Assembly (NCBI GenBank): GCA_028673005.1
Contig: CM054114.1
Span: 26,588,869 to 26,652,868, forward strand
From: Tanypteryx hageni
Lineage: Eukaryota > Arthropoda > Insecta > Odonata > Petaluridae
Reading direction: 5' to 3'
DNA: 64,000 bases
How positions within the stretch are numbered: position 1 is the first letter of the stretch; each line of letters starts with the position of its first letter. Below the pieces are notes generated by a model, which was given only the letters and a program-made list of their open reading frames with translations, did not search any database and was not told where the DNA came from. A program made the translations under genes and the position numbers. Positions 24,168 to 27,100 of the stretch are shown piece by piece.

Positions 24168-27100
24168 CTGTGAAAGTAGAGATTCAATGAGACAACTCTT
24201 CTATGGAGAAAACAAGTGTATCACGATCATGTGAAAAGGGGAAGACAAAATGGAACGCATTAAATGAGAGACAAAGTATATTACCTGCTCTCCCCAATTA
24301 CTTCCCCAACTGTTCTTAATGATCCAGAAAGGCATTGTTTTGTTAAAGAGAGGATAGTCTGGAAGATAAAAATATAAGGATTAATAAGAGCTTACCTGCT
24401 CCCCCCAAGATGTACCCCAGCTGTTCTTAATAATCCAATAAGGAAGAGTTCTATGGAGTATGGATGTCCCTGAAAAATTGGATTCTATAATTGATACTTC
24501 CCATTCATATGAGGCACAATTAGCTCTACATTCAAGCCCTCTAAAAGTAAAAATAATCCTCCAAACTACAATAATTAGGTAAATATTGTCAGCTACTTTA
24601 AGGTGCTAAAGTTCAAACTTTGCCAAATGAGTTCATGAATAAAAATTCATGACATAAATTTCAAACCAGAAAAAATAAACACTGAAATTACATTTCTTAG
24701 TAAGAATAGTTATAAATAAATGATCATTGATTAAAAGCTGTAATCGGTCCAAGGTTCAATGACAATTAATCATTAGTAAATTTTTCAGCAGGAGAATAAC
24801 TACCCAAAGCCCATCTGAGTACAGAGATTCACGTGAAGAAACAAAGTAACAGTTTACATTTTCCCGTATTTTTCCTTATCACGTAATTCTAGCATCGCTC
24901 ACGAGAATGCGATAGCTGTATTGATGGTAGTGTCATTTTTTTATTATTTCTCACTTTTCATTAGATTCTCCTGCCACTGGAAGGTTATGTTTTCTTGGTT
25001 TCCCATCTAGTTTTTCAATTTTTTCAGTTCTTCTTTTATTTGGAGTTATTAGTACATGTATATTATTATAATGCTATTTATATCTAATTTTTTTAATAAA
25101 TAGTTTGATTTATCAGCTTCAAAATCTCTACCGGTGTACTACCTTCATCGTCTTTCTTTTGCAGTTATTGTTTTGCATTTATTGAATCCTCAACTATCTT
25201 CAGGGTTATTCTGTAAGTTCTTGTATGTTACTTTATCATCCATAATACGTGTAGTGAATACTGTTACATAATAAGAAATGATTATTCCAACAACATTTTG
25301 GCGGTAATTGATGCCACCTCATGTAATTTCTGTGCAGTTACTTTGCTTGCTTTTATTGGCTATTTATTATATATATTTATTCATGATTATTACTAGAAAT
25401 TTTCATTATTTTATCTCCTTTACTTTTAGTGATTATTTCTACATATGAAGCAAATGATTTCTCTGCTAACAAATTTTGGCTGTAAATGATGTTGACTCGT
25501 GATTCTCTCTTACAGATAGTGTTTCCCTTTTATAGGGTAATTAGCTCCCCACAGTCTTCAGTTTCATTTTTTGTAGGTTCCTGTTGAATTATTCTAATCA
25601 TTTTTGTATCTGTCCCATATAAAATATATGTATTTTTGTGAATGTAATAAATTATGGATGTCCTGCCCTTTTCAGTTGTAAAAATGGACCTAGATTCCAA
25701 TGTTACTGATTCTGACGAAATTTTTGTCAATGATTCTGGAAGTTTCACTGGCATTACTGACACTGACTCAGATGTTTGTAATGAATTATGTTTCAAGGAT
25801 GCTAAGGATTGGCATGAAATCAATGCGGAAACACCACCACCACCTCAACTACATTTTACTGCCATACCTGGAGTCCAAATGGATTCAGATGATGACACAG
25901 GAATTCTTAAGTACTTTGAGGCATTTTTAAATGAGGATTTAATAAATTTAATTGTAAAGGAAACAAATCAATATGCTAATCAGAGCATAAAATCATCAGT
26001 ACTTAGAAGATTTTCTCTACAGCTATCATGGCAGCCAACAACATCAGAGGAAATGAAAGTATTTCTTGCTATCATTATTTATCAAGGGATAGTAAAAAAA
26101 CCAAGGGATGAGATGTATTGGTCAAAGAAGTCAACAATACTAACTCCGTTTTTTTCCAAAATCATGTCCTATCGCAGATATGTTCTTTTGAAATGCTACC
26201 TCCATTTTACAGACAACGATACATTTGACCCCATGAATCATCCGAATCCAAAACTTTTTAAGATTTGGCCTATTTTCCATCATCTGAACACCATGTTTTC
26301 AAATCTCCTTTCACCTATGAGAGATCTGTCAATAGATGAAAGGTTGATGCTTTATAAAGGTAGATTAGGGTGAAGGCAATACATGCCAATCAAAAGGGCC
26401 AGATTTGGAATCAAGAGCTTCATGCTATGTGAATCCATTCCGGATACATATGGCCTAGCATTATTTACACAGGCCAAGGCATGCAGTTTTGTCAAGAATA
26501 TGATCATCTCCCTGTCTCATCACAGATTGTGCTGTCCCTAATGAATCCTGTACTGGGTAGAGGTTATTGTGTTGTAACAGACAATTACTACACTTCTCCG
26601 GAGTTGGCAGACATTCTTGTATCTAACAAAATGGATACCTATGGAACCATCCATCTAAACAGAAAAAATATTCCCAATGAATTGGAGAGTAGAAAAATGA
26701 AAACGAGGGATATTGTCGGATTTCAGAAAGGAAAGACTTGTGTCATGAAGTGGAAAGATAAAAAAGAAGTTTTGTTGCTCTCTACAGTGCATAATACTGA
26801 GATTGTGGAGATACAAAAAACAAAGGAACAGAGAGGAAGCCCAAGGTTGTGTTATAATATGACACAATAGGAGGATTTGATAAAATGGATCAGAATCTTA
26901 CCTACAACCCAATCATCAAAAGAGGGGGGAGAAAATATTATAAAAAAATATTTTATCATCTTCTCGATCAGACAATATGGAATTCTTTTGTTTTATACAA
27001 AAAAGGTGGAGGCTCAAAAATCACCTGAGTTTTAGGTTGGAACTAATAGATCTGATCCTTGAAAAATATGAGTGAGGAAAATAGTTCGAAAGGGGGTAGG

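What the first reader, a model, noticed from the sequence alone, without database searches (positions are those of the whole stretch)
24285..24469. Tandem-duplicated catalytic-Asn exon, apparently mutually exclusive, in a cathepsin F-like gene
Exons 24396-24469 and 24285-24358 are both exactly 74 nt, with good AG acceptors and GT donors, the same start phase, the same end phase and intact IIKNSWG. They share 14 of 24 residues, and the loop before the active site has changed almost completely. Using both would shift the frame (74 is not a multiple of 3) and would need removal of a 37-nt intron, probably below the workable minimum. Using either one gives a complete protease. This predicts two isoforms sharing Cys and His but differing in the wall next to the catalytic Asn, so one gene could make two substrate or inhibitor specificities. 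I do not know of this arrangement being described for cathepsin F.
Basis: partly seen in the sequence, partly recalled or inferred. Interest (0 to 1): 0.92.

Follow-up and report, generated by a model that had tools for sequence, protein, structure and literature searches.

The report
Swappable exon pair in cathepsin F
One arthropod protease gene carries two alternative versions of the short exon that holds a catalytic residue, and the same two versions turn up in insects and crustaceans, which points to an old splice switch that our paper searches did not find described.

Summary
Minus-strand exons A (24469-24396) and B (24358-24285) are each 74 nt, share phases and splice signals, match at 14 of 24 residues, and are separated by 37 nt. 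Either alone gives an intact cathepsin F-like protease; both, neither, or retention of the 37 nt does not. No second copy of the pair was found in the 1.68 Gb genome.

The strongest support comes from outside the window. Two exon versions, A (TxxLHRxxPYW) and B (YPxFxKxxP[FY]W), recur across arthropods. Crayfish isoforms P0090 (A) and P0052 (B) are identical for 298 residues before and 24 after the segment and differ at 10 of 27 within it. A crab gene model reads A then B (P0036). These are two selected, very probably mutually exclusive exons, older than the insect-decapod split.

The proposed consequence needs correcting. In models of both crayfish isoforms the changed residues form the tip of the His-Asn beta-hairpin, about 12 residues from the Asn, not the active-site wall. 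I favour altered glycosylation, partners or sorting over altered cleavage. No RNA evidence was available for the window species.

The parts
24396..24469 (-). Exon A (upstream alternative): (R)[24 protein letters not shown], 74 nt, phase 1 to 0
   Evidence: class A; 85% identical to the Cryptotermes segment
24285..24358 (-). Exon B (downstream alternative): (N)[24 protein letters not shown], 74 nt, phase 1 to 0
   Evidence: class B; up to 81% identical to other rows of the segment tree
24359..24395 (-). 37-nt interval between A and B, GT...AG; branch-like TTAAT with the A at 24381, 14 nt after the first donor base; in-frame TAA 24383-24381 if retained
   Evidence: branch point picked by eye
24336..24344 (-). 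N-K-T glycosylation sequon at the loop tip of exon B; none in the loop of exon A
   Evidence: sequence; sequon in 20 of 81 unique B segments and 1 of 51 unique A segments
24093..24167 (-). Shared last coding exon, [24 protein letters not shown]
28035..28128 (-). Shared upstream exon with catalytic His ([13 protein letters not shown])
29987..30252 (-). Shared catalytic-domain exon; GC-AG donor (GCAG|gcaagg)
30840..30936 (-). Shared exon with catalytic Cys (GMCGSCWAF)
37717..37865 (-). Shared exon, propeptide end to start of mature enzyme
46563..46764 (-). Shared exon with I29 propeptide
   Evidence: PF08246 65.8 bits
52655..52720 (-). Candidate cystatin-like exon (ends approximate)
   Evidence: tblastn of P0001, E 4e-07; Pfam check failed on my coordinates
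61266..61409 (-). Candidate cystatin-like exon (ends approximate)
   Evidence: tblastn of P0001, E 2e-04

Best explanation
A and B are an old pair of mutually exclusive exons in the one cathepsin F-like gene found in this arthropod genome. Only one can be used: the 37-nt interval leaves about 14 nt from donor to the likely branch point, too close for the spliceosome (steric exclusion), and because 74 is not a multiple of 3 any product with both, neither, or the retained interval is broken. Each isoform is a full papain-fold protease with the same Cys, His and Asn. They differ mainly in the tip of the beta-hairpin between His and Asn: basic T-S-I-L-H-R in A, aromatic Y-P-L-F with an N-glycosylation sequon in B. 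Shown: layout, frames, two recurring classes, one crayfish gene with both forms in protein records. Inferred: steric exclusion, regulated choice, and that the tip governs glycosylation, partner binding or location more than cleavage specificity.
For: Layout and in silico splicing of five combinations. Few amino-acid changes against many silent ones between the copies. Of 184 homologues fetched, 175 segments were parsed by rule and 9 were not; with six of those labelled by hand, 56 are A, 99 B, 26 unclassified, 3 unlabelled. Procambarus P0090 (A) and P0052 (B): 298 residues before and 24 after identical, 10 of 27 differ within. Petrolisthes P0036 reads A then B, and Diaphorina P0095 reads A then the end of a second copy. 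Tree of 59 rows without the segment: 10 label changes, A and B mixed among decapods, psyllid rows and the P0131/P0077 group. Tree of 56 segments: one A/B split, SH-aLRT 97. In 12 of 12 like-class loop comparisons among four sets the score exceeds both cross-class scores. Both isoforms score alike on PF00112 (250.5 and 249.3 bits), and both crayfish models match human cathepsin F 1m6d (rmsd 0.9 and 1.4). Donor-branch distance under 50 is the steric criterion used in PMC5740500 (passages). No second copy found in the genome.
Against: No transcript of the window species was available. The crayfish pair are database isoform models whose RNA support I did not see; they also differ near the N-terminus. 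A/B labels came from the segments themselves, so the segment-tree split is partly by construction and rests on 27 columns. On the exon-free tree the labels are not spread at random: 10 changes against a shuffled mean of about 16, with 2 and 0 of 500 shuffles as low, so class follows lineage in part. The psyllid pair is two species. Spiders, scorpions, myriapods, flies, beetles and moths show only B in my listings, which are the best 120 per search of sets clustered at 90%, so a partner could be hidden or absent. Limulus, Artemia, Tigriopus and the louse Polyplax fit neither class well. The function of the loop is untested.
Confidence: 0.87

Rival explanations
1. Only one exon is used; the other is a tandem copy on its way to decay that still looks intact.
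For: No RNA data for this species; many named lineages show a single class in the listings.
Against: Both copies keep phases, splice sites and catalytic residues while silent sites are saturated. Each copy scores closer to its own class in crayfish, psyllid and P0131/P0077 rows than to the other class. One crayfish gene yields both in protein records.
Confidence: 0.06
2. Both are used together through cryptic sites inside A (GT in GGT) or B (AG before AAC), giving a protein with a doubled catalytic strand.
For: Gene models P0036 (crab) and P0095 (psyllid) are such fusions, and in the window the AG within exon B would be in frame with A (by eye).
Against: A doubled catalytic strand should not fit the C1A fold. 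Of 184 homologues five hold NSW twice: these two, and three non-fusion cases with the whole surrounding stretch repeated (P0016, P0097, P0135). Both fusions look like automatic prediction artefacts (inference).
Confidence: 0.03
3. Mutually exclusive exons that set substrate or inhibitor specificity by reshaping the active-site wall.
For: The exon carries the catalytic Asn and the neighbouring Trp; two residues after NSWG differ (TS versus SN).
Against: The class-specific residues lie at the far hairpin turn, and the residues after NSWG are not class-specific.
Confidence: 0.2

Closest known systems
Steric-exclusion / frame-shift mutually exclusive exon pairs (e.g. alpha-tropomyosin, alpha-actinin, OGDH 4a/4b)
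   Same: Two homologous equal-length exons, interval too short to be an intron, joint inclusion breaks the frame. PMC5740500 counts, among 629 human clusters, 57 (9%) with donor-branch distance under 50 and 377 (60%) with lengths not divisible by 3 (passages). OGDH is from the start of the abstract of PMC7969005 in the listing; the other gene names are recalled.
   Different: The gene is a papain-family cysteine protease and the exon carries a catalytic residue. My paper searches brought up no such case.
Arthropod Dscam, Mhc and N-cadherin mutually exclusive exons
   Same: Arthropod exon duplications with one-of-n choice, old within the phylum (listing).
   Different: Two exons only, no convincing RNA pairing, an enzyme and not an adhesion or motor protein.
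Insect serpin alternative exons (PpSerpin-1)
   Same: Duplicated exons vary a protein of protease control (listing; one passage of PMC12758981).
   Different: Here the protease itself is varied, at an internal hairpin.
Human cathepsin F (1m6d)
   Same: Same mature fold; crayfish models 57-58% identical, rmsd 0.9-1.4.
   Different: The human hairpin is about six residues shorter (alignment); alternative exons in the human gene were not looked for.

Membership tests
Mutually exclusive exons | Homologous, equal-length exons with the same phases and intact splice sites | tested here: met
Mutually exclusive exons | Each alone gives a complete frame; both or neither does not | tested here: met
   (model from the I29 exon onward)
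Mutually exclusive exons | Both isoforms exist from one gene | tested here: inconclusive
   Met in Procambarus by protein records (298 + 24 identical flanking residues); no data for the window species
Mutually exclusive exons | Junction reads bridge each exon, and no reads join the two | not testable with these tools
   no RNA-seq available
Steric-exclusion subtype | Donor to branch point under 50 nt | tested here: met
   whole interval is 37 nt; criterion from PMC5740500; branch point itself by eye
RNA-pairing (docking/selector) subtype | Complementary intronic elements | tested here: inconclusive
   five pairings tried: 8, 12, 41, 68 and 137 of 200 shuffles as good; one species only, and only the first and last 400 nt of the upstream intron
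Cathepsin F (C1A) | Peptidase_C1 with I29 propeptide and Cys, His, Asn present | tested here: met
   motifs
Cathepsin F (C1A) | Cystatin-like N-terminal domain | tested here: inconclusive
   two tblastn matches of the N-terminal part of P0001; not joined into the model, no Pfam check (one search failed)
Cathepsin F (C1A) | ERFNAQ-type propeptide motif (recalled) | tested here: inconclusive
   window reads E-R-F-N-I-Q: final Q as in F, I in place of A (by eye)

The most novel reading that the evidence does not exclude
A splice switch in a lysosomal-type protease has been kept since the arthropod stem: hairpin tip B is the often glycosylated, resident form and tip A a form routed elsewhere. In one unnamed, crustacean-like lineage the A form has further gained its own C-terminus with a Thr-rich, mucin-like tail, so one gene makes an intracellular and a matrix- or mucus-bound cathepsin F.
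Probability: 0.25. Interest if true: 0.78.

Novelty: new member of a known kind. Interest (0 to 1): 0.62.

Why it matters
Mutually exclusive exons are well known in channels, motors and adhesion proteins. An enzyme whose catalytic-residue exon is duplicated and swapped, with both versions shared between this arthropod and crayfish, would be an old case of protease diversification by splicing instead of gene duplication. It also warns annotators: two gene models fuse the exons (crab P0036, psyllid P0095), and protein sets clustered at 90% can hide one isoform. It offers a clean test: two enzymes that differ at only 10 (crayfish) or 11 (window) residues, most of them far from the cleft.

Tried and rejected
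RNA pairing between the upstream intron (first and last 400 nt), the 37-nt interval and the 117-nt intron: five pairings, reached by 8, 12, 41, 68 and 137 of 200 shuffles; not used as support. Other duplicated exons in the gene: none seen in the window. Tandem Asn exons in other C1A genes: the NSW motif was seen once per gene in 4 of 8 fetched loci of about 3.2 kb, two of which (L001, L003) show the same gene; the genome search shows one match per other locus. Active-site-wall idea: rejected as main reading after the models. The Macrobrachium mutually exclusive example in PMC9767951 is described there as an alpha-actin ortholog, not a cathepsin. Papers: ten searches, of which one search was about steric exclusion only; none of the titles or abstract starts listed describes this. 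Most listed papers were not opened. Term searches inside seven papers were made (PMC12758981, PMC3228551, PMC5740500, PMC9767951, PMC3303723, PMC4244043, PMC8956072); PMC3228551 and PMC3303723 held none of the terms. Subscription papers and supplements are not covered. The organism was not identified; no well-supported set on the flank tree holds the window gene.

Full report
What is there. A cathepsin F-like gene runs on the minus strand from at least 61.4 kb (candidate cystatin-like exons near 61.4 and 52.7 kb) to the stop at 24095-24093. The I29 exon is 46764-46563; then 37865-37717, 30936-30840, 30252-29987 (GC donor), 28128-28035, then A 24469-24396 or B 24358-24285, then 24167-24093. Both isoforms score on Peptidase_C1 (250.5 and 249.3 bits) and I29 (65.8 and 65.9 bits).

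The observation. Residue identity is 14 of 24. The 37-nt interval is GT...AG with a branch-like TTAAT 14 nt from the donor (by eye). In silico, A alone and B alone give 318 residues from the I29 exon on; A plus B runs out of frame; retention of the 37 nt meets TAA after four codons; skipping both shifts the frame. Donor matches to CAGGTAAGT are 8 of 9 for A and 7 of 9 for B.

More than chance, and not simple decay. Only this exon is doubled in the window's gene. In the genome, an 80-residue query gave 12 matches: 4 from this gene, 7 from other loci at 35-46% identity, one each, and one at 38% with two stops; only the best 11 candidates were scored. Between the two copies the 16 codons from P to Q have NG86 dN 0.12 and dS 2.35; over all 24 codons dN is 0.27 and dS saturated. 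The stretch is short, but copies that are this diverged at silent sites yet keep frame, splice sites and active-site residues look selected.

Relatives. Three protein searches (best 120 listed of 7805, 443 and 260) gave 184 distinct proteins. The rule parsed 175 segments and missed 9. By score against A and B, with six of the missed rows labelled by hand, 56 are A, 99 B and 26 unclassified; P0039, P0078 and P0095 stay unlabelled. The A set contains P0016, a short-loop outsider, and P0093, one residue longer; with 27-residue segments only, 53 are A and 94 B. Named A rows include Cryptotermes, Nilaparvata, Schizaphis, Kerria, Procambarus, Penaeus, Macrobrachium, Portunus and the mite Medioppia; named B rows include spiders, scorpions, a millipede, a centipede, a springtail, an ant, beetles, moths, flies, Cacopsylla, Procambarus and Panulirus (names; animal groups mostly recalled). 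Limulus, Artemia, Tigriopus and Polyplax fit neither well.

Same gene, two exons. Procambarus clarkii P0090 (named isoform X5) and P0052 (named isoform X2) are identical for 298 residues before and 24 after the segment and differ at 10 of 27 within it; they also differ near the N-terminus. The switch falls where the window's exon borders lie. The Petrolisthes model P0036 reads A up to KNSW and then B from YPVF, and the Diaphorina model P0095 reads A and then NSWGPRWGEQ. Both look like predictions that fused neighbouring exons, A first, as in the window; I did not see their DNA. The unnamed pair P0131 (A) and P0077 (B) agrees at 199 of 200 residues before but 16 of 24 after the segment, so there the exchanged part may extend to the C-terminus.

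Age. I chose 58 of the 184 homologues (42 named, 16 unnamed) plus the window gene. Their tree without the segment needs at least 10 A/B changes and mixes the labels among decapods, psyllid rows and the P0131/P0077 group; against this, shuffled labels need about 16, so class also follows lineage in part. A tree of 56 segments (four short-loop rows dropped, both window exons added) needs one change, SH-aLRT 97; the labels came from the segments, so that split is partly built in, and 27 columns resolve little else. The less circular check: among window, Procambarus, P0131/P0077 and psyllid rows, 12 of 12 like-class loop scores exceed both cross-class scores, while A-B loop scores within each set are 9, -1, -6 and -2 (the psyllid pair is two species). 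The simplest history is one duplication before insects and decapods parted. Class A in a mite and class B in spiders and myriapods would push it towards the arthropod stem; this is suggestive only.

Where the change sits. AlphaFold models of P0052 and P0090 are uncertain overall (mean pLDDT 71.0 and 69.9, N-terminal part disordered) but confident here (10-residue means 86-97 over 461-490). Catalytic His begins a long strand, the class-specific residues make the turn, and the return strand ends at the catalytic Asn. This speaks against a role as the wall beside Asn. Human cathepsin F has a hairpin about six residues shorter.

What it may do. Window exon B carries N-K-T at the tip. N-x-S/T occurs in this part in 20 of 81 unique B segments and 1 of 51 unique A segments; most B segments, the crayfish one included, lack it, so it cannot be the whole story. 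Tails: 11 of 53 A rows but none of the 92 parsed of 94 B rows end in more than 40 extra residues, and 8 of the 11 are 70-89% Thr/Ser; they may belong to one lineage and so be one event. Together these favour differences in glycosylation, partners or location; this is inference.

Literature. Ten searches of the open library (on steric exclusion only) listed no title or abstract start that describes mutually exclusive exons in cathepsin F or CG12163; CG12163 with 'mutually exclusive' gave 0 papers. Most listed papers were not opened, and subscription papers and supplementary exon tables are not covered. Record names show that databases already hold both forms as isoforms in crayfish, so what is new is the recognition, not the raw records.

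Verdict. A real two-exon switch, conserved as two exon classes; a known kind of splicing in a gene family where I did not find it described; the mechanism of choice and the function of the loop remain inferred.

Noticed in passing
P0080, P0116, P0127, P0131, P0132, P0133, P0134, P0144: Class A homologues from unnamed sources end in Thr/Ser-rich (70-89%) mucin-like tails; none of the 92 parsed 27-residue class B rows has a tail over 40 residues.
   Followed up: partly
29985-29986: GC-AG intron (GCAG|gcaagg) after the exon 30252-29987.
   Followed up: no
25651-26867: DDE_Tnp_1_7 (piggyBac-type, name recalled) transposase remnant in two ORFs inside the intron upstream of exon A, opposite strand.
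   Followed up: partly
31952-32584: ORF with a hAT dimerisation region within a gene intron.
   Followed up: partly
28702-28774 and 29009-29081: Two tRNA predictions (Thr, Ala) about 300 bases apart inside similar repeats in an intron; look like tRNA-derived SINE copies (sequence; SINE reading by eye).
   Followed up: no
50017-50694 and 5793-6434: Reverse-transcriptase ORFs (RVT_1), the second below the curated cut-off.
   Followed up: no
19622-20086: MULE transposase domain ORF.
   Followed up: no
P0036, P0095: Gene models that appear to fuse the two alternative exons into one protein with a doubled catalytic segment.
   Followed up: partly
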